The notes below the pieces were generated by a model. That model searched no databases, was not told the origin of the DNA, and saw only the letters and a program-made list of their open reading frames with translations. A program made the translations under genes and the position numbers. Shown in pieces: positions 6,338 to 15,981 of a DNA stretch of 64,000 bases. Every line of letters begins with the position of its first letter. Within the stretch, counting starts at the first letter, position 1. Origin of the DNA: Pseudaquabacterium terrae (lineage in GTDB: Bacteria > Pseudomonadota > Gammaproteobacteria > Burkholderiales > Burkholderiaceae_C); the NCBI RefSeq assembly GCF_013266755.1, contig NZ_JABRWJ010000002.1, forward strand, positions 682,001 to 746,000. The letters run 5' to 3'.

Positions 6338-9300
6338 TCACCGGGCGGGCATCAACGCACCGGCCGGCTCCGCATCGATGATCCGGCCGCGTCCTTGCTG
6401 CGCGTCACGCAGGATGCGTGCATCGATCGGATCGCGGTCCCACGGCCGGGCCCCAACGGCCGCCGGCAGTTCGCGCAGCACGCGCTCGGCCCGCAGCGGC
6501 AGCAGGCCCGGCGGCAGGTAGGGCGCGGCACCGGTGACGAGCCGGGCCGTGCGCGCCATGCCCTCGCCGCGGCGCAGCGCGGGCTCGTCGACGCCCGGCG
6601 CCAGCGGCTGGCCGTCACCCGGCACGGCAATGCGCACGGGTGCCGGCGCGCCGGCCGCGTCGAAGGCCAGGTTGTCCGCCATGAAGAGCTCGAGGTCGCC
6701 GACGCCTTCGAGCGCGAGGAACGGCGTGCCGGCCAGCGTGTCGGGCCCCGCGCGCAGCACATTGCCCTGCAGCGCCAGCCGGCCGTTGACCGGTGCCTGG
6801 CCGCTCCATTCATCCGCCAGCAGGTTGTAGTGCACTGCGCGCGTGCCGGGATTGACGATCAGGTTGTTGACCATCGCGCCACGCGCGCCGCCCTTGAACA
6901 GCGCATTGCGCTCGCGGTTCGAGACGTAGACGTTGCCATACAGCAGGATGCCGCTGGCGTTGTCGTGGATCAGCGTGCCTTTCGAATGCTCGCCCTTCTC
7001 GTGCACCGAGTGACTCAGGCCTTCGGCGATCAGGTTGTGGCTGTAGGTGATGCGGTGCGAGGTCGCGCGCCGCCAGGCTTCCGGCGGCGGCCCGCCGTCG
7101 AAGCGTGGGCCGGAGGCCGAGAGGTTCTCGTCGGTGGCCCAGGTGAAGCTGCAGTGGTCGACGATCACGTCGTGCGCGCCGTCGACGGTGGAGATGCCGT
7201 CGTGGTCGTTGCCCGACTTCTTTCGGCGGCCATAGGCTCCGGGGCGGAACGAGAGGTGCTGCACGATCACGTCGTGTGTCGCGACCTGCGTCTCGCCGCG
7301 GATCAGCGTGATGCCCGGCGCAGGCGCGCTGTCGCCCGCGATGCTCAGGTGCGGCCTGCGCAGCACCAGCTTGCCGCCCGCCAGGTCGATGCGGCCGGCG
7401 ACGTCGAAGACGACAGTGCGCGGGCCGTCCGCATCGATGGCTGCGCGCAGCGAGCCGGGACCGTCGGCGGCGAGCGTCGTCACGCGGATCACGCGGCCGC
7501 CTTCGCCGCCGCGGGTGCGGGTCCAGCCGGTCGGGCCGATCCCGCGGGCATCGAAGCCGGGCTCGGCCGCCGACCAGCCGCCCGGCGGCGCCACCCCGAG
7601 CGCGCGCAGCGCCTGCGCGGCGAGTTGGGCCATCGCGAACGCGCCTTGCGCGCTGAAGTGCGTGTTGTCGCGGATGCCTTCGGGATGGCGATCGAGGTCG
7701 CCGGGCTCCGCGTGCACGAAGAGTCGCTTCGACTCGTCCGGACCCAGGCGCTCCAGCAGCGCGGCGCTGGCGCGCTGCAAATCGAGCAGCGGCAGCTTCA
7801 GCTCGGCGGCGACCGCGCGGGCCATCGCCGGGTAGTCGCCGTGCGTGTCGCGCAGGCGGCCGGTCGCGTCGAACTCGCGGCGGGCGAGCGGCGTCGCCAG
7901 CAGCGGCGTCGCGCCGCGTTCGCGCACTTCCTGCGCGAAGCGGCGCAGGTTGTCGCGGTAGGCGCCGCGCGCATCGGCGAAGCGCTTCGGATCGTCGGCT
8001 TTCGCATCGTTGTGGCCGAACTGGATCAGCACCATGTCGCCGGCGCGCAGCTGGCTCAGCAGATGGGCCCAGCGGCCTTCATCGCGGAAGTTCTTCGTGC
8101 TGCGGCCGTTCATCGCGTGGTTCACGATGCGCTCCGGCTCGGCGACCAGCGTGCGGAACAGCGTTCCCCAGCCGTGCTCGAGGTTCGGCGGTGATGCCGG
8201 CTTGTCGGCCAGCGTCGAGTCGCCGACCAGGTGCAGCGCCGGGTGCACGCTGGCCAGCGGTCCCGGCCGGTGCACATGTGCGACGAGGCTCGCGAGGTAG
8301 GCCTCCAGCGGCGTGGTGCCGCTGCGCGGGTCGATGCGTGCGCCGTCGCGCGGATCGGCGCGATCGAGGCCGTGCGCCGTTTCCCAGGCGTCGGGCAAAC
8401 CGTCGCGGTCGCCGTCCGCCGGTGCGGGCAGTGATTGCAGCGCCGGCCAGCCGCCAACCTCGCGCTGGCTGTCGATCAGGCGGCCCGAGCGCTGGCGCAC
8501 GTGGCGCACGATCCGCAGGTCGACCAGGTCGCGCACGAGCGATGCGCCGGCATGCGCGAGCACGCGATCCTGGGCCGTGTCCGCCGCGTCGGGCGTCACC
8601 GCCCCGTTGTCCGGTGGCTCGGCCAGCCCGTAGCCGGACGGCAGTCCGTTCGGCAGATGCTTCGGATGCGCACGCACGAGACTGTACGGGTCGGCCGGGA
8701 TTACGCCGTTCATCGCATTGCGCGCAAAGTACGCGTGCGCAGCGGTGCTGCTTTCCTCGAACGCCAATGCCCCGGTCGACATCGGGCCGGCGATGTAGGC
8801 GTTGTCGGTGAAGCGGTAGGTCGAGCGCGTGTTCGTCGAGTCGAGGTTGTAGCCGGCGCGGTCGCGGCCCCAGCCGTAGAAGACATTGGCGCGGAAGTCG
8901 AACACCGCCCCCTGCGGGTCGATGTCGGGCTGGTGCCAGTTGCCCGGGCGCGGCATGCGGTCGAGGTGCAGCGCCCACAGGTTGTGGTGCATGCTGATGC
9001 GCGCACCGCGGCTGGCGCGCAGCAGCGTGCCGAAGCCATGCGCCTCGCCGCGCTTTGGTCGGTTGAGGTTCAGCGATTCGGTGATGAAGCTCCACTGCAC
9101 CGTCACGTCACCGAAGCTGCGCTCCGGCGTGTCGAAGCGCGCCGACAGCGACAGCGCCTCGTCGGTCGACCAACTCGCCGAGACGTGGTCGAGCATGATG
9201 CGGCGGCCGGCGACGACGCCGATCGCATCGCCGTCGACGCCGGATTCATCGCCGAGCCGCGAGCGGATGAAGCGCACGACCACGTCGTCGGCCGCGATCT

Positions 9301-9655
9301 CGAACGGCTGGTCGCGCAGCGTGATGCCGTCGCCGGGCGCCGTCTGGCCGGCAATCGTGATGCGGCCGTGGGTGATGCGCAGCGGCGTCTTCAGCGCGAT
9401 CGTGCCGGAGACTTCGAAGACCACCGTGCGTGGGCCGCTCGCCTCGACCGCGGCGCGCAGCGAGCCGGGGCCGCCATCGCCGAGGTGCGTGACGTGGAAG
9501 ACCGCACCGCCGCGGCCACCGAGTGCGAAGCGTCCGGCGCCCTCGGCGCCTGGGAAGGCGAGCGGCTGTGGCGCGGCCGGGGTCGTCGGCGGCGGCAGCG
9601 TGCAGGCGGCGAGCGCCGACGCCGCGGCCGCGGCCGCGAGCCGCCGCAGCGCCAT
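6338..9655 (-). CDS. Trimodular exported pectinase: pectate lyase - SGNH acetylesterase (CE12-like) - pectate lyase
   Basis: This 1105-residue lipoprotein-like enzyme has a lipobox, ASALAAC, at residues 13-19. Module 1 (about 31-400) is a right-handed beta-helix pectate lyase (PL1_2-like) beginning FPGAEGAGRFALGGRGG. A calcium-binding-like linker, DGDRDGLPDAWE, lies at 414-425. Module 2 (about 470-690) is an SGNH hydrolase with GDS at 478-480, NHAMNG at 512-517, GHND at 547-550 and DNTHFS at 663-668, as in CE12 rhamnogalacturonan or pectin acetylesterases. Module 3 (about 700-1105) is a second pectate lyase. It would act at the cell surface on acetylated pectin. Its ATG shares the A of the preceding gene's TGA, so the two are translationally coupled. 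Confidence 0.85.
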   Translation of the reverse strand: MALRRLAAAAAASALAACTLPPPTTPAAPQPLAFPGAEGAGRFALGGRGGAVFHVTHLGDGGPGSLRAAVEASGPRTVVFEVSGTIALKTPLRITHGRITIAGQTAPGDGITLRDQPFEIAADDVVVRFIRSRLGDESGVDGDAIGVVAGRRIMLDHVSASWSTDEALSLSARFDTPERSFGDVTVQWSFITESLNLNRPKRGEAHGFGTLLRASRGARISMHHNLWALHLDRMPRPGNWHQPDIDPQGAVFDFRANVFYGWGRDRAGYNLDSTNTRSTYRFTDNAYIAGPMSTGALAFEESSTAAHAYFARNAMNGVIPADPYSLVRAHPKHLPNGLPSGYGLAEPPDNGAVTPDAADTAQDRVLAHAGASLVRDLVDLRIVRHVRQRSGRLIDSQREVGGWPALQSLPAPADGDRDGLPDAWETAHGLDRADPRDGARIDPRSGTTPLEAYLASLVAHVHRPGPLASVHPALHLVGDSTLADKPASPPNLEHGWGTLFRTLVAEPERIVNHAMNGRSTKNFRDEGRWAHLLSQLRAGDMVLIQFGHNDAKADDPKRFADARGAYRDNLRRFAQEVRERGATPLLATPLARREFDATGRLRDTHGDYPAMARAVAAELKLPLLDLQRASAALLERLGPDESKRLFVHAEPGDLDRHPEGIRDNTHFSAQGAFAMAQLAAQALRALGVAPPGGWSAAEPGFDARGIGPTGWTRTRGGEGGRVIRVTTLAADGPGSLRAAIDADGPRTVVFDVAGRIDLAGGKLVLRRPHLSIAGDSAPAPGITLIRGETQVATHDVIVQHLSFRPGAYGRRKKSGNDHDGISTVDGAHDVIVDHCSFTWATDENLSASGPRFDGGPPPEAWRRATSHRITYSHNLIAEGLSHSVHEKGEHSKGTLIHDNASGILLYGNVYVSNRERNALFKGGARGAMVNNLIVNPGTRAVHYNLLADEWSGQAPVNGRLALQGNVLRAGPDTLAGTPFLALEGVGDLELFMADNLAFDAAGAPAPVRIAVPGDGQPLAPGVDEPALRRGEGMARTARLVTGAAPYLPPGLLPLRAERVLRELPAAVGARPWDRDPIDARILRDAQQGRGRIIDAEPAGALMPAR

Positions 9656-12600
9656 CACGGCGCCGGCACCCAGCCGCCCGGCGCGCCGGTGGCGATCGTG
9701 CTCTTGAAGAACACCTCGGCGCGTGTCGCCAGGCCGCTGGTGCTGTCGAGCGGCTTGGCGAGCTGCACGGTGGCCGGCTGGCCGTTGACGCTGACGGTCG
9801 CCGCACCCAGGCGGCCGCTCACATCGAGCGGCAGGCCGCCGAGGTCCATGCTGCCCCACTCGCGCCAGCCGGCCGCGTCGGTCGCGCCGCCGTTCGCGGT
9901 GCCGGCCCACGGCGGCGGGTTGCTGCCGCAGGCGCCCTGCGCCGTGCCGGTGCGGCTGGTGCCGGTTCCGACACACCAGCCCACGGGCAGGATGTGCGGC
10001 CCGATGCGCGTATTGATGAACGCGATGTTGTCGACATAGGTGCTGCTCGTCGTGCTGCCGCTGCGTGCCAGGTAGGCCTGCGTGACGCCGGCACCGGCGC
10101 TGAGCGTCGAGTCGAGGAAGACGAAGCCCGCATCGCCCGGTGTCGCGCGGGCCTGCAGGATGAAGCCCGGCGAGCTGCTCGAGGGATCGAAGACCGAACG
10201 GATCTCGCTCTGCTCGAACAAGGCCGCCATCGGGCCGCCCCAGATGAAGTCGACGTTGCCGGCGACCAGCGAGCGCCACACCCACACGTAGCCCTTCAGC
10301 TGCAGCGTGTCCTGTTCGGACAGGAAGTTCATCTCCTTCGCAAGCAAACGCGCCGCGGCCGGCGTCTGGCTGGTGTTGAAGTAGATCGCTTCGGCCTGGT
10401 TGTCGTAGAGGCCGCTGCGCGTGTGCGGATTCTCGAGCGTGAAGTTCTGCAGCGTCAGCAGGTCGGCGTTCTCGACCAGCAGCACCGCGCGCCCGCCGCC
10501 CAGCACGCGGTGGCCGGGCACGCGGCCGGACGTGGTGAGCGTGGTGCCGGCGCTGGTGGCCGTCGCGCCGCTACCGGAGTTCAGCGACTCGAAGTTCACC
10601 GCACCGACGCGCACACCGTCGCGGCTTTCGCCGACGATGCTCAGGTTGTGCACGTTGCGCAGCGTCGCGAGTTCCGGGTAGACGCCGTTCTTCAGCGTGA
10701 TGGTCTTCGGCGTTGCGACGGTATGGCAGCCCCACGCCGGCGCGCTGCCGGTGGAACACGAGGCCATCACCCAGTTCAGCGCGCCCTGCAGCGTGCGGAA
10801 GTCGGCGGTGCTGCCGTCGTCGTCCACCGTCACGCTGGACCGGCTGGCCGGGGCGCTGCGCGTCGTGAAGCTCCACTGCGCGCCGGCGAAGGGTGCGTTG
10901 TGCACCGTGCCGCCGAAGGCTGCGGCATCGATGGTCACGGTGTAGGTGGTGTCGAAGGCGAGGCGGTTGTTGTGCAGCTTGATGGTCGCGGTGTTGCCGC
11001 TGGTCGTCACCGGCCGGACCCAGACGAAGCGCGCGCGGCCGTCCAGCATTGCGCCGGCGGCCAGCGCGTCGATCTCGAGGTTGCTGCGTGGCAGGATGGT
11101 CTGCGTGTCGCCCGTCGACGGCGTGCTCGACAGGTCGATGCGGTCGACGATGGCACCGTCGCTCGCGCGGCGCACGGTGACGAAGCCGCTGGTGCCGAGC
11201 TTCGGTGCGCCGTCGAACGCGAGCAACAGCGCCGTGTCGACATGCACGCCGCCCGCGCCGGCCGCGGGCAGCAGCGTGCCTGGCGTCGCGCCGACGTTGC
11301 CGCTGCCGGTGATGGTGGTTTTCAGCTTGCCGGCGCCGGCCTTGGCGAGCGCATTGGCCTTGACCAGCGACGTCGGCCGCGGCGTGAACGGGTAGGGCAC
11401 GCTCCAGGCCACCGCCGACGACACCGGACAAGCGCCGAGCGCCGCGCCGTTCAAGAGCGAACCGGCGTCGGCAAAGGCGCTCGCCGCGTTGGCATTCAAG
11501 GTCTGCAGCACGCTCGCACAACCCGGCGCCGCACCGCTGATCGCGTAGACGTTCGCATGCGAGATCACCTGCGCGCCGGTGCCGATGCCCACGCTGTACG
11601 AATGCCCGTACACCGGCGCCCCCTTCGCGCCGGCGTGGTAGTTGTTGAACACGTGCACCTGGCCGAAGCGCACGCGCGGCGCGCGCTGGCCGACGGCATT
11701 GAACACGTTGTTGGCAATCGTCACCTTGAGCCGGCCGATGTCGGCGGTGAAGCTGTCGGAGTGGCCGATCAGCATCGTCTTGTCGTGGCGGTCGATCAGG
11801 TTGTACGAGACCGTCACGTGGTTCGCGCCGCGCGTGATGTCGATCGCGCCGTCGTGGCACTGCCGCGTCTTGCCGTTCTCGATGGGCAACTGGTCGTCGG
11901 TGACCGGCGCGTCGGTGATCGTGTTGCGGTCGATCCAGACGTGGTCGGCGCCGAGGATGGTGATGGCGTCGTAGGCGGCGTTCCAGTTGCCGGTGGCGCC
12001 GTCGTTCGGGTCCCACACCGGCGCGATGTCGCAGGGCGCGGCGAGGTGCAGGTTGCGCACGATGACGTTGGACACGCCGATGATCTCGATGCGGCCGTTG
12101 GCGAGGCCGGCGCCCGGGCCGCTGCCGATCAGCGTGGTGTTCGAGGGCAGCCGCACCATCGCGCGCTGGTCCTGGTCGGCGCGGCTCGCGTAGGGCAGGC
12201 CCTCGCTCATGTCGATGCTGCCGACCACCTTGATGATCTTCGGCTTGACGCCGCCGTTGTTGATCGCGGCCAGCAGCTGCGCGCGGTTCGACACCGCGTA
12301 GATCTGCTCGGCGCTGGCGGCCGCGCCGCCGCTGGTGCCGCCGGCCATCGCCGCCCAGCCGTCGGCCGGCGCGGACTCGCGTGCCGGATCGGTCTGCGCG
12401 GCCACCGGCAGCGCCAGCGCGGCCGCGGCCAGCACGCCGAGCGAACGGCGCCGCAGGCCGCTGCCGGCCGCCGCGCCGAGCGCCGCGGCGATCAGCGCGA
12501 TGGTTGCCGGCTCGGGCACGCTGTTCAGCTGCAGGTTCAGCGGACCGAAGCCGTCGCGCAGCTGCACGTCGGTCAACTTCAGCTTCAGCGCGTGGCCGCC

Positions 12601-13005
12601 GTCGATCAGCGTGGCATCGATGCTGCCGGCGGCGAGCATCGAGTGATCGACGCTGACGCTGCCCAGCGGCGCGAGCAGCCCGGCGAACGACAGCGTCAGC
12701 TCGGTGCTGCCGCTCCAACCCGTGCCGCCGTTGTCATACAGCTGCACGAGGCCGCTGCTGAACAGGTCGATCGCGAGCGTGAAGTCCGCGCTCAGCAGCT
12801 CCAGGTCGGAGTCGGTGAGCGTGACGACGTTCGAGCCGGCGCCCGGCTGGAAGCCCGTGTCCAGGCCCAGCAGGCTGGCCTGGCCGTCCTGCCGCGCAGT
12901 GACCAGCGTGCCCAAGGGCACTGGCGCAGCGGCCAGCGGCAAGCTCGCGCCGAGCAAGGCCGCCGCGGCGAGTGCGGCGGCCGCGAAGGAAGCGATGCGA
13001 TTCAT
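9655..13005 (-). CDS. PEP-CTERM-tagged segment fused to pectate lyase (PL1) and pectinesterase (CE8)
   Basis: This is a 1116-residue exported protein. A signal peptide (1-27) precedes a beta-rich domain (28-160) that ends with a complete PEP-CTERM-like signal: VPEPATIALIAAAL at 163-176, then an arginine cluster at 184-187. A second signal-peptide-like stretch follows at once (LGVLAAAALALPVAAQ, 189-204). Next comes a PL1 pectate lyase (about 215-570) with YDAITI, HDGAIDIT, KTMLIGH and RAPRVRFG, the last holding the catalytic Arg. An Ig/Big_5-like segment (about 595-716) precedes a CE8 pectinesterase (724-1116) with SEQDTL and GNVDFIWGG. It would demethylate and cleave homogalacturonan. The internal sorting signal suggests fusion of two ancestral genes by loss of a stop. 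Confidence 0.85.
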   Translation of the reverse strand: MNRIASFAAAALAAAALLGASLPLAAAPVPLGTLVTARQDGQASLLGLDTGFQPGAGSNVVTLTDSDLELLSADFTLAIDLFSSGLVQLYDNGGTGWSGSTELTLSFAGLLAPLGSVSVDHSMLAAGSIDATLIDGGHALKLKLTDVQLRDGFGPLNLQLNSVPEPATIALIAAALGAAAGSGLRRRSLGVLAAAALALPVAAQTDPARESAPADGWAAMAGGTSGGAAASAEQIYAVSNRAQLLAAINNGGVKPKIIKVVGSIDMSEGLPYASRADQDQRAMVRLPSNTTLIGSGPGAGLANGRIEIIGVSNVIVRNLHLAAPCDIAPVWDPNDGATGNWNAAYDAITILGADHVWIDRNTITDAPVTDDQLPIENGKTRQCHDGAIDITRGANHVTVSYNLIDRHDKTMLIGHSDSFTADIGRLKVTIANNVFNAVGQRAPRVRFGQVHVFNNYHAGAKGAPVYGHSYSVGIGTGAQVISHANVYAISGAAPGCASVLQTLNANAASAFADAGSLLNGAALGACPVSSAVAWSVPYPFTPRPTSLVKANALAKAGAGKLKTTITGSGNVGATPGTLLPAAGAGGVHVDTALLLAFDGAPKLGTSGFVTVRRASDGAIVDRIDLSSTPSTGDTQTILPRSNLEIDALAAGAMLDGRARFVWVRPVTTSGNTATIKLHNNRLAFDTTYTVTIDAAAFGGTVHNAPFAGAQWSFTTRSAPASRSSVTVDDDGSTADFRTLQGALNWVMASCSTGSAPAWGCHTVATPKTITLKNGVYPELATLRNVHNLSIVGESRDGVRVGAVNFESLNSGSGATATSAGTTLTTSGRVPGHRVLGGGRAVLLVENADLLTLQNFTLENPHTRSGLYDNQAEAIYFNTSQTPAAARLLAKEMNFLSEQDTLQLKGYVWVWRSLVAGNVDFIWGGPMAALFEQSEIRSVFDPSSSSPGFILQARATPGDAGFVFLDSTLSAGAGVTQAYLARSGSTTSSTYVDNIAFINTRIGPHILPVGWCVGTGTSRTGTAQGACGSNPPPWAGTANGGATDAAGWREWGSMDLGGLPLDVSGRLGAATVSVNGQPATVQLAKPLDSTSGLATRAEVFFKSTIATGAPGGWVPAP

Positions 13006-13020: not shown

Positions 13021-15981
13021 TCAGAACTTGTAGCGCAGGCCGAGCAGGTACTCGCGGCCCGTGACGTGGTAGACCACCGAGCTGTTGCGTGCGCGGCTGA
13101 TGAACTGGTCGTTCGGGCGGTCGGTCAGGTTGACGCCCTCGAGCGTGAACTCGACCTGGTCGCTCCATTTGTACGATAGCGATGCGTCGATGTTGACGCT
13201 GGAGTTCTTGCCTTCGACGTCGTTGTTGTTCTGCCCGGGCACGCGCTGCAGGAAGCCCATGCGGTAGGCGCCGGAGACGCGGGCGCTGAACTTGCCGTCG
13301 TCGTAGTACAGCGTCGCGTTCCACGACTTGGGCGACAGGTTCAGCAGATCGTCGGTGATCGTCGCCCCGCCGTTCGGCGACACCAGGTACTCGATCTTCG
13401 ACTTGACGTGCGTGTAGTTCAGCAGCGTGCCGAAGTTGCGGCCGATGCCCGGCAGGAAGGTGAAGGGCTGCTGGATGTTGATCTCGAAGCCGTTCAACTT
13501 GCCGCCCTGGGTGTTGACCGGCGTGGTGACCTGGAACACCTCGTCGCCGGTGAAGTTCGACGGCAGCAGCGACAGCGGCAGCCCCGTGTCCTTGTACGGC
13601 ACGTTGGTGCGCAGGCTCTGGATGTAGGTGTTGATGTCCTTGTGGAACAGACCCAGGCCGACGAAGGCGTTGCGCGAGTGGTACCACTCGAAGCTGGTGT
13701 CGAAGGTCTTGGCGCGGAAGGGCTTCAGCAGCGGGTTGCCGCTGGTGATCGACAGCGTGCCGGTGGTGCTGATGGTGCCGCCCGGGTTCAGGAAACCCAG
13801 CTGCGGACGCGCCATGACCTTGGCCGCGGCGAAACGCACGACGAAGTCCTTCGTCAGGTTGGCCGACAGGTTCAGCGCCGGCAGCACGTCGTCGTAGCTC
13901 TGCGCCACCTGCACCTCGGTGCCGCCCGCGGTGGCCTGGTAGCCGGTGGCCACCTGCTCGGTCTTGACGTAGCGCACGCCGAAGTTGCCGCGCAGCGGAA
14001 TGCTGCCCAGCGCGGTCGTGAAGTCGGCCATCAGGAAGCCGCCGGTGTCCTTCTCGCTCACCGAGCGGTTGTTGCCTCGCGCGTTGCCGTTCGTGATCGA
14101 CGACAGCGTGAAGTCGCCGGGGCCGCCGACCGGGCCGCTCTTGAGGCAGTTGCAGTAGATGTCGTAGGTCTGAGCGATCGCGTTGAGGTTCGGGATCGCC
14201 CACGCGGTGGGTGTACCTGCCGGCAGGTCCAGGCCCTTGCCGAAGCCGCTGATCATCGTCACCAGATTGGCGATCGGCACCCCGGCGGCCGGCGCGAAGA
14301 TGGTGTCGTTCTGGTTGATGCGGCGGAATTCGTAGGTGTCGAAGTCGTACTTCTTGTAGTCGGCGCCGGCCTGCAGCGTCAGCTTGTCGGGCACGATCTC
14401 CCACGCCACGTCGGCATGCAGGATGTCGTTGCGGTTGTTCGAGCCCTGCGGGCGGATGCGGATCTCGCTGCTGGTGGTGTTGGCGATGGTGGTCGGCTGC
14501 GTGCCGCTGGTCACCTGCGGCACGCCGACCAGGGCGAGACTGCCCGTGCCGGCCTGCGTGGGATCGAACGGATAGCCGATCACCGGCAGGCGGCTGTTGT
14601 TGCGGAAGTCCAGCGTGTAGCCGTTGACGTTCAGCGCGTCCAGCGTCGTCGTCGTCTGCACCGGATTGCGGAACTTCGAATCGGCGCGGCCGAGCTTGGC
14701 ATTGACGGTGACGAAATCGCCGAAGCGCTGCTGCAGCGTCAGGCTGGGCTGCGTGAACTCGGTGCTCAGCTCGTCGAAGCGCGACTCGGCGCGGATGTCG
14801 ACGCCGTTGTAGCGGCCGAACTGCAGCGCACCGTTGGCGGCGTAGTCGGCCTGCAGCACGCTGGTTTGCGGCTTGCCGCCCTGGCCCGCGGTGCGGCTGA
14901 ACGAGATCGCCTCCAGGAAGTCTTCCTGCCGCGTCGCCTCGAGCTTGGCGTACAGCACGTCGAAGGTCAGCAGCGTGTTCTCGCTCGGCTTCCATTGCAC
15001 CGAGCCGGTCAGGCCCAGGCGGTCCTGGTCATGCGTCAGCCGGCCGTAGCGCGGCAGGCGCGGGTGGAAGTTCGCCGCGTTGCTCGATGCGTTGTAGGCG
15101 GCGATGGCCTCCGGCGTGCCGGGTATGCGTGCCACGCCCTGCGCGGCCGGGCCGCAGGTGGTGGCGGTGGAATTGCTCGGGTTCGCCGGCGTCACGCCCT
15201 GCGGCGCGCACCAGCCGCCGGACGACGGACCGTTGTCCCAGCGCACGGTGGAGAAGCCTTCCTCGAGCAGCTGGCGCTTCGAGTAGGCGCCCGACAGCAG
15301 CACGCCGAAGCTCTTGTCCTGGTTGGTGTTCGAGACCAGGAACGCGACGCGCGGATCGGTCTTGCCCGACAGGTCGTTGTAGCGGCCCTTCAGCGACGCG
15401 GTGGCCTTGAAGCCGCGCGGGAAGTCCAGCGGCCGCGAGGTCTGCAGGTCGACGGTCGCGCCGAGCGAGCCTTCGTCGACATCGGCGGACGAGCTCTTGC
15501 GCACGGTGATCGAGTTGAACAGCTCGGCGGCGAAGACGTTGAAGTCGAAGCCGCGCGAGCGGTTCGCGCCGCCCGACGAATCGGTGCCGCCGGTGGTGGC
15601 CAGCGCTTCGATGCCGTTGATGCGCACGCGCGTGAAGTCGAGGCCCAGGCCGCGCACGGTGATGTTGCGGCCTTCGCCGGCATCGCGGTCGATCACCACG
15701 CCGGGGATGCGCTGCAGCGATTCGGCGAGGTTGGTGTCCGGGAACTTGGTGATGTCCTCGGCCTTGATGACGTCGACGATGCCGCGGTCCTCGCGCTTGG
15801 CGTTCAGCGCGCTTTCGAGCGCGGCGCGCATGCCGGTGACGACGACCGTCTCGCCGCCGGACTGCGCGGGCTTGGCTGCCGGCGCGGTCTGCGCGTGTGC
15901 GGGGGCATTCAGCGCGGCAAGGACCGCCAACGTGACGGCGGTGGGCAGGGCTTGCGGGAAGCGCGGCGTGCGCATGCTCAT
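13021..15981 (-). CDS. TonB-dependent outer-membrane receptor for pectin oligosaccharides
   Basis: This is a 986-aa TonB-dependent receptor of the large Caulobacter/Xanthomonas type. The signal peptide ends near AHAQ (residue 31). GETVVVTGMRAALESALNAK starts the plug region, which continues with IKAEDITKFPDTNLAESLQR and PGVVIDRD. A 22-strand barrel follows, ending in the aromatic signature YLLGLRYKF. SD GGAGACAAG lies 4 nt before the ATG. It is the first gene of a leftward cluster with both pectinases, so galacturonan fragments are the likely ligand. That is inferred from neighbours, as receptor sequence alone does not give specificity. Confidence 0.88.
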   Translation of the reverse strand: MSMRTPRFPQALPTAVTLAVLAALNAPAHAQTAPAAKPAQSGGETVVVTGMRAALESALNAKREDRGIVDVIKAEDITKFPDTNLAESLQRIPGVVIDRDAGEGRNITVRGLGLDFTRVRINGIEALATTGGTDSSGGANRSRGFDFNVFAAELFNSITVRKSSSADVDEGSLGATVDLQTSRPLDFPRGFKATASLKGRYNDLSGKTDPRVAFLVSNTNQDKSFGVLLSGAYSKRQLLEEGFSTVRWDNGPSSGGWCAPQGVTPANPSNSTATTCGPAAQGVARIPGTPEAIAAYNASSNAANFHPRLPRYGRLTHDQDRLGLTGSVQWKPSENTLLTFDVLYAKLEATRQEDFLEAISFSRTAGQGGKPQTSVLQADYAANGALQFGRYNGVDIRAESRFDELSTEFTQPSLTLQQRFGDFVTVNAKLGRADSKFRNPVQTTTTLDALNVNGYTLDFRNNSRLPVIGYPFDPTQAGTGSLALVGVPQVTSGTQPTTIANTTSSEIRIRPQGSNNRNDILHADVAWEIVPDKLTLQAGADYKKYDFDTYEFRRINQNDTIFAPAAGVPIANLVTMISGFGKGLDLPAGTPTAWAIPNLNAIAQTYDIYCNCLKSGPVGGPGDFTLSSITNGNARGNNRSVSEKDTGGFLMADFTTALGSIPLRGNFGVRYVKTEQVATGYQATAGGTEVQVAQSYDDVLPALNLSANLTKDFVVRFAAAKVMARPQLGFLNPGGTISTTGTLSITSGNPLLKPFRAKTFDTSFEWYHSRNAFVGLGLFHKDINTYIQSLRTNVPYKDTGLPLSLLPSNFTGDEVFQVTTPVNTQGGKLNGFEINIQQPFTFLPGIGRNFGTLLNYTHVKSKIEYLVSPNGGATITDDLLNLSPKSWNATLYYDDGKFSARVSGAYRMGFLQRVPGQNNNDVEGKNSSVNIDASLSYKWSDQVEFTLEGVNLTDRPNDQFISRARNSSVVYHVTGREYLLGLRYKF

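What the first reader, a model, noticed from the sequence alone, without database searches (positions are those of the whole stretch)
9655..13005. Internal PEP-CTERM sorting signal followed by a second signal-like helix and PL1-CE8 pectinase
Seen: VPEPA plus hydrophobic helix plus RRR cluster at residues 163-187, immediately followed by LGVLAAAALALPVAAQ and then pectate lyase and pectinesterase modules, all in one open frame. Established: PEP-CTERM signals are normally C-terminal and cut by exosortase. Inference: either a stop was lost between a small PEP-CTERM gene and an exported pectinase gene, or the signal is used internally to split a polyprotein into two exported parts.
Basis: partly seen in the sequence, partly recalled or inferred. 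Interest (0 to 1): 0.75.

Follow-up and report, generated by a model that had tools for sequence, protein, structure and literature searches.

The report
Two exported proteins in one chain
In this bacterium a surface-type protein and a pectin-cutting enzyme, separate genes in most relatives examined, are fused end to end through their membrane signals, and the same kind of joint turns up with other proteins, which hints at a little-known way of making two exported proteins from one gene.

Summary
One frame of 1116 codons (9655-13005, minus) encodes signal peptide, small beta domain, PEP-CTERM signal (163-187), a second signal peptide (188-203), then PL1 and CE8 pectinase modules. It is no sequencing slip: a separately assembled genome, Aquabacterium humicola (88% identical), has the same fusion. 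In 29 of 31 pairs examined the halves are two adjacent genes. The joint has been kept: residues 146-189 are the longest identical run between the two species, and the 25 PEP-CTERM codons differ at 9 third positions and nowhere else. The joint recurs. Around this genome's 40 best PEP-CTERM matches 41 signals were counted; 3 are internal, and all 3 run straight into a signal-peptide-like segment. In all I found 13 such proteins, in 9 families and 9 genomes, with partners such as a lipoprotein, a cyanophycinase-like protein and a sugar dehydrogenase; 13 of 13 internal signals have the second signal, against 3 of 172 C-terminal ones read past their stop. Most likely these are secretory polyproteins: the PEP-CTERM helix stops transfer, its arginines double as the next signal's n-region, and signal peptidase frees the second half. 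Processing is inferred, not shown.

The parts
9655..13005 (-). fused ORF, 1116 aa: PEP-CTERM protein plus PL1-CE8 pectinase
   Evidence: same fusion in A. humicola (G003/L192)
12925..13005 (-). first signal peptide, about residues 1-27 (cut site judged by eye)
   Evidence: sequence; helix 4-18 in the model
12520..12924 (-). small all-beta domain, residues 28-162, function unknown
   Evidence: AlphaFold2 model, pLDDT 89-97 in the blocks from 31 to 160, strands from 34 to 162; no PDB match at E 0.001 or below
12445..12519 (-). PEP-CTERM signal, residues 163-187, internal
   Evidence: PF07589 and TIGR02595 over cut-off; 25 of 25 residues identical to G003 with 9 third-position changes
12397..12444 (-). 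second signal peptide, residues 188-203, without a convincing start codon of its own
   Evidence: sequence; stands where the split pectinases have their N-terminal signal peptides; start-codon scan
11323..12393 (-). PL1 pectate lyase module, residues 205-561
   Evidence: PelA 1ooc/1pe9 E 1.5e-89; PF00544
10861..11010 (-). Big_5 Ig-like domain, residues 666-715
   Evidence: PF13205 E 2.5e-7
9949..10716 (-). CE8 pectin methylesterase module, about residues 764-1019
   Evidence: 2ntb/1qjv E 1.4e-8, 3uw0 E 2.8e-6; PF01095 26.5 bits, cut-off 27
13021..15981 (-). TonB-dependent receptor just upstream in the same direction
   Evidence: TIGR01782 675 bits, cut-off 310
6338..9655 (-). next gene, PelZ-like multidomain protein with a lipobox by eye; its ATG overlaps the fused ORF's stop (TGATG)
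   Evidence: NF041900 460 bits, under its cut-off of 840; sequence

Best explanation
A secretory polyprotein. The chain is exported by its first signal peptide; the beta domain goes to the periplasm; the PEP-CTERM helix stops transfer with its RRR cluster in the cytoplasm; the same RRR cluster then serves as the n-region of the second signal peptide, which restarts export. Signal peptidase I cuts after about residue 203 and frees the pectinase, while exosortase XrtA handles the N-terminal half at its PEP motif. The gene arose when the boundary between two adjacent genes was deleted. Shown: the frame, the parts, the split state of relatives, the conservation, the recurrence. Inferred: topology, both cuts, and equal dosage of the two products.
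For: Same fusion in two genomes assembled apart. 29 of 31 pairs split; the fused pair is one clade beside split G013 (100/99; midpoint root). The longest identical run of the protein is 146-189, and the 25 PEP-CTERM codons show 9 third-position and no other changes. One XrtA match in the genome. Recurrence: 13 internal PEP-CTERM signals in 9 families, 13 of 13 followed by a signal-like segment, against 3 of 172 C-terminal ones on read-through (which extends: 11 of 11 against 3 of 165); in this genome, in stretches brought in by Pfam alone, 3 of 3 against 1 of 38, Fisher 3.8e-4. From VPEP to the predicted second cut, chosen by eye, there are 40-45 residues in 11 of 11 and 41 and 43 in family I (counted). 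Four families (A, B, F, I) are fused in two genomes each. In I the split relative G494 has MNTSRIAAALLAAGLASGAQA as its second gene's own signal where fused G479 has RRRRVAAAALIGASLASGAHA. In G the second half has a free-standing relative (35% identity) with its own signal peptide at that place.
Against: No expression or protein data. The second signal was judged by a simple rule of mine, not by a trained predictor. Only 2 of 31 pectinase pairs are fused. In family B the PEP segment is loosely kept between the two species (13 of 25 residues, dN 0.47, dS 0.73) and the second signal has dN 0.46 above dS 0.32, so strong constraint on the joint is shown for A only. Outside this genome most finds came through a profile, or a whole-chain query, that itself contained a second signal, which favours such finds. 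Families C, D, E, G and H are known fused from one genome each.
Confidence: 0.62

Rival explanations
1. The enzyme stays uncut: a single membrane-tethered pectinase held by a two-helix hairpin, with or without loss of the N-terminal half by exosortase.
For: Nothing here shows cleavage; the c-region (PVAA|Q in G000, PAAA|Q in G003) is acceptable but unproven.
Against: Split relatives make a pectinase with an ordinary signal peptide at the same place; small or aliphatic residues at -3 and -1 are kept in both fused species.
Confidence: 0.14
2. An accident without use: two genes ran together, the N-terminal half is a relic and the PEP-CTERM no longer matters. Haft et al. 2006 (PMC1569441, section 5 read) suggested that the very few PEP-CTERM signals with dramatically longer tails may be non-functional.
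For: The fusion is rare in this family (2 of 31); the N domain evolves faster than the enzyme (dN/dS 0.36 against 0.20); in family B the joint is loosely conserved.
Against: In A the PEP-CTERM lies in the longest identical run after the fusion; no stop or frameshift breaks the N half in either species; the joint recurs, with a second signal in 13 of 13.
Confidence: 0.12
3. Two products by internal start: ribosomes also begin inside the fused frame and make the pectinase separately.
For: In-frame ATG, GTG or TTG codons lie near most joints; by eye some give a good signal peptide: B of G000 (ATG), E (TTG), F of G197 (ATG), H (ATG). Four-base Shine-Dalgarno-like runs stand before some candidates in D, F, G and H.
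Against: In A, G003 has no ATG, GTG or TTG between the GTG of VPEP and the mature enzyme, and no Shine-Dalgarno-like run stands before any of A's candidates in G000 or G003.
Confidence: 0.1
4. Sequencing or assembly artefact (missed stop or indel).
For: None found; possible in principle for the singletons C, D, E, G and H.
Against: For A, G003/A. humicola shows the same joint inside a 2.3 Mb contig; in G000 it lies inside an 879 kb contig.
Confidence: 0.02

Closest known systems
PEP-CTERM proteins sorted by exosortase A (XrtA)
   Same: N-terminal signal peptide, beta domain of no recognised family, VPEP motif, hydrophobic helix, arginine cluster; XrtA in the genome
   Different: The signal is internal, followed by 929 more residues with a second signal peptide. 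Haft et al. 2006 (PMC1569441; section 5 read, other passages by find) report that 87% have fewer than ten residues after the model's end, median three.
Cytochrome b/c1 precursor FbcH of Bradyrhizobium japonicum (recalled; no paper on it recognised in the listings)
   Same: As recalled: one bacterial gene, two exported products, split by signal peptidase at an internal signal peptide after a membrane helix
   Different: There the first product is a polytopic membrane protein; here it is an exported surface-type protein with an exosortase signal, and the joint recurs among unrelated partners
Viral envelope polyproteins with internal signal peptides (general knowledge; examples seen only as listing and abstract starts)
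   Same: Stop-transfer helix followed by an internal signal cut by signal peptidase
   Different: Eukaryotic viruses and ER; here the Gram-negative inner membrane
PL1 pectate lyase and CE8 pectin methylesterase of the Dickeya type (1ooc, 2ntb; organism recalled)
   Same: Both catalytic modules recognised by sequence
   Different: Both on one chain, and behind a PEP-CTERM protein

Membership tests
PEP-CTERM protein | PEP-CTERM model match over the curated cut-off | tested here: met
   PF07589 21.6 bits (20.7), TIGR02595 19.1 bits (16)
PEP-CTERM protein | signal lies at the extreme C-terminus | tested here: not met
   929 residues follow; so the whole ORF is not an ordinary PEP-CTERM protein, only its N-terminal 187 residues look like one
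PEP-CTERM protein | exosortase in the same genome | tested here: met
   one XrtA match
PEP-CTERM protein | cut or transferred by the exosortase | not testable with these tools
   needs an xrtA deletion
secretory polyprotein split by signal peptidase | two separately encoded counterparts in relatives, one chain here | tested here: met
   29 of 31 pairs split, fused pair one clade
secretory polyprotein split by signal peptidase | internal segment with signal-peptide features | tested here: met
   own rule only; stands where split relatives have N-terminal signals
secretory polyprotein split by signal peptidase | two mature products observed | not testable with these tools
   no protein data
PL1 pectate lyase | PL1 domain match | tested here: met
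   PF00544 E 7.3e-53; 1ooc E 1.5e-89
CE8 pectin methylesterase | CE8 domain match over cut-off | tested here: inconclusive
   PF01095 26.5 bits against 27, but 2ntb/1qjv E 1.4e-8

The most novel reading that the evidence does not exclude
A class of bacterial secretory polyproteins exists, so far seen in the window's own family of Burkholderiales, in which an exosortase sorting signal and a signal peptide share one basic cluster and act as a reusable joint. One ribosome then delivers an exosortase-sorted surface protein and a second exported protein (enzyme, lipoprotein or another PEP-CTERM protein) in equal number at the same place, with signal peptidase I or II and the exosortase doing the cutting. 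Adjacent PEP-CTERM genes that lie close to or overlap the next exported gene are its raw material.
Probability: 0.48. Interest if true: 0.82.

Novelty: new variant of a known kind. Interest (0 to 1): 0.7.

Why it matters
PEP-CTERM signals are taken to be C-terminal, and the few with long tails were suggested to be non-functional (PMC1569441, section 5 read). A joint that recurs in 9 families, is shared by two genomes in 4 of them, and in one lies in the longest identical run of the protein says otherwise. It also gives a handle on where and when the exosortase acts: in these chains the exosortase motif and the predicted signal peptidase site lie 40-45 residues apart in one molecule, so order and dependence of the two cuts can be read off a single gel. 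Annotation may misname such ORFs.

Tried and rejected
Sequencing error: rejected for A by G003. A single lost stop: unlikely, because the split genes looked at near it are in other frames. Internal start for the pectinase: no candidate codon in G003 between VPEP and the mature enzyme. Function of the N domain: the AlphaFold2 model is good (mean pLDDT 87.4) but Foldseek gives nothing at E 0.001 or below; the best hits, GH98 enzymes, have TM about 0.25 and E about 0.005, so I make no claim. Constraint on the joint as a general rule: clear for A, not for B, and the first PEP-CTERM of F is too close to tell (dN 0.04, dS 0.05).

Orthologue searches: C, no whole chain in the 2 other genomes of its genus, which hold separate relatives of the cyanophycinase part. 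D, no whole chain in the 41 others of its genus; G494 has a relative of the first half. Going over again for this report led to family I, which I had missed; the probability of the novel case goes from 0.45 to 0.48 for that. G, no fusion in the 148 other genomes. H was not searched for orthologues. E is split in G197 and G512.

Dropped before counts: of 54 genome-contig loci, 5 in the family's range without an N partner just upstream (L201, L206, L215, L220, L221; L221 has an N relative elsewhere in the locus) and 21 distant ones (L225-L245). In some searches signals were picked by a motif rule of mine that drops helices with charged residues or low hydrophobicity, so signals of other shape were missed; one search missed family H for that reason. 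Searches used loci L040-L069, L091-L191 and L246-L308 (97 also L329-L338), not all loci held. One search scored only 17 candidates a genome in 399 genomes and cut its list, so it is no census. Of 48 Pfam matches in this genome the 8 weakest (E 0.8 to 9.3) were not inspected.

Literature: PEP-CTERM with exosortase gave 39 papers (listing and abstract starts seen); PEP-CTERM with polyprotein 0; exosortase with polyprotein 0; PEP-CTERM with stop codon and signal peptide 1, the Haft paper; PEP-CTERM with pectate lyase 2, listing and abstract starts; bacterial polyprotein phrases 2, both off topic; signal peptidase with internal signal or bacterial polyprotein 62, 15 listed. Only open-licence PMC papers were searched, so absence from print is not shown.

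Full report
What is there. The minus-strand frame 9655-13005 holds 1116 codons and starts at an ATG with GGAGG before it. From the N-terminus: a signal peptide, a small beta domain, a PEP-CTERM signal at 163-187 (PF07589 21.6 bits, TIGR02595 19.1 bits, both over cut-off), SLGVLAAAALALPVAA|Q as a second signal-like segment at 188-203, a PL1 pectate lyase (PelA 1ooc, E 1.5e-89), a Big_5 domain and a CE8 pectin methylesterase (2ntb E 1.4e-8; PF01095 half a bit under its cut-off). The neighbours are a TonB-dependent receptor, a PelZ-like protein whose start overlaps the fused ORF's stop, KduI (428 bits, cut-off 250) and a KdgK-like kinase (345 bits, under its cut-off of 400): a pectin-use locus. 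The genome gave one exosortase match, XrtA.

It is a real fusion of two genes. In a named collection 54 loci matched; 28 have the N partner just upstream, and of these only A. humicola is fused. Adding G013, G144 and the window, 29 of 31 pairs are split, 12 of the 29 with a four-base ATGA overlap. The nearest split relative, G013, instead has a gap of about 180 bases. A tree of 35 second halves gives the fused two as one clade, next to split G013, inside Sphaerotilaceae (support 100/99; root at the midpoint only). From VPEP to a conserved Asp at the start of the enzyme the fused chains have 43 and 44 residues; the 29 split pairs sum to 46-65, median 51. So stop, start and part of the tails went, and the arginines of the first signal now stand where the n-region of the second should be.

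The joint is kept. Between G000 and G003 the 25 PEP-CTERM codons differ at 9 third positions and no others (dN 0, dS 0.52), against dN/dS 0.36 in the N domain and 0.20 in the second half; the second signal itself has 10 of 15 residues identical. The longest identical run in the whole protein is 146-189, 44 residues; other parts have runs of 35, 34 and 33, so the joint is first among several rather than alone. The 30 aligned N partners, the two fused ones included, all keep V, P and the last P of the motif; two have VPLP.

The joint recurs. In this genome a Pfam search gave 48 matches down to E 9.3; I inspected the 40 best. By a motif rule 41 signals lie in those stretches: 38 C-terminal with at most 24 residues after, 3 internal. 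The two others are B, PEP-CTERM joined to a protein with lipobox LTGC by eye (996 aa), and G, PEP-CTERM joined to a TIG plus beta-helix protein (838 aa). B is fused in G003 too (68% identity); in G027, G081 and G004 it is two genes with an ATGA overlap and in G016 two genes without that overlap; G012 was fetched but my motif rule found no signal there. A profile made from the joints led to C in G081 (cyanophycinase model 93 bits, under its cut-off of 126.6), D in G442 and E in G358 (two PEP-CTERM proteins in a row). E is split with ATGA in G197 and G512, which both carry F, a fused relative of E. H, in G081, joins a PEP-CTERM protein to a GSDH sugar dehydrogenase (PF07995 72 bits, cut-off 25) that ends in another PEP-CTERM. 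I, in G479 and G487, joins two proteins of which the second ends in a PEP-like VPEA or VPEV tail; in G494 the same pair is split by a TGA, and the second gene there has its own Met and signal peptide.

Controls. Of 185 distinct signals in the stretches used, 13 are internal with at least 100 residues after; 13 of 13 run into a signal-like segment, against 3 of 172 C-terminal ones read past their stop (before family I, 11 of 11 against 3 of 165). Outside this genome the queries favoured such finds, so the fair figure is this genome's 3 of 3 against 1 of 38 (Fisher 3.8e-4).

How it most likely works. From VPEP to the predicted second cut there are 40-45 residues in 11 of 11 and 41 and 43 in I (counted): about what two membrane helices with a short basic turn need (inference). 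The PEP-CTERM helix is held to be a stop-transfer helix with basic residues inside (PMC1569441, section 5 read); a signal peptide needs basic residues inside at its start. Joined, one cluster does both. Signal peptidase I (or II for B) can then free the second half without the exosortase, and the exosortase can still see its motif at the outer face. I hold this at 0.62. Uncut hairpin, useless accident and internal start remain (0.14, 0.12, 0.10). Internal start is weakest for A, where G003 has no usable codon, and strongest for E, H and single members of B and F.

Against it. Nothing is known of expression. The joint of B is loosely kept (13 of 25 residues; second signal dN 0.46, dS 0.32). Five families are known fused from one genome each. 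The signal rule is crude. The N domain has a good model but no recognisable relative, so what the pair gains from being one chain is unknown; equal dosage and co-delivery are guesses.

Novelty. Parts and cutting enzymes are known; bacterial polyproteins cut at an internal signal have a precedent as I recall (FbcH). PEP-CTERM signals as internal joints did not show up in the searches I ran (listings, and one section of one paper), and the founding paper leaned the other way. New variant of a known kind.

Noticed in passing
L034/L193 (Pelomonas sp. Root1237), junction of the two genes: The codons of the PEP-CTERM arginine cluster spell AGGAGG eight bases before the ATG of the pectinase, so one stretch could be both sorting signal and ribosome-binding site.
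   Followed up: partly
window 9653-9657: The fused ORF's TGA and the next gene's ATG overlap as TGATG, so the downstream PelZ-like protein is probably translationally coupled.
   Followed up: no
L295 (G512:C9) and L296 (G197:C23): The two halves of this fused chain look alike by eye, as if a tandem duplicate had been joined by the PEP-CTERM and signal-peptide joint.
   Followed up: partly
L199 (Rubrivivax rivuli) and L202: The N partner carries VPLP in place of VPEP, a motif that another exosortase type is named for (XrtD, VPLPA-CTERM, in the list).
   Followed up: no
L329 (G479:C283) and L331 (G487:C18): Downstream of fused family I a frame reads like a TonB-dependent receptor by eye, as also stands beside the pectinase fusion.
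   Followed up: no
window 6338-9655: A single minus-strand protein matches the pectate lyase PelZ model in three stretches and a pectin acetylesterase model in one, all under cut-off.
   Followed up: no
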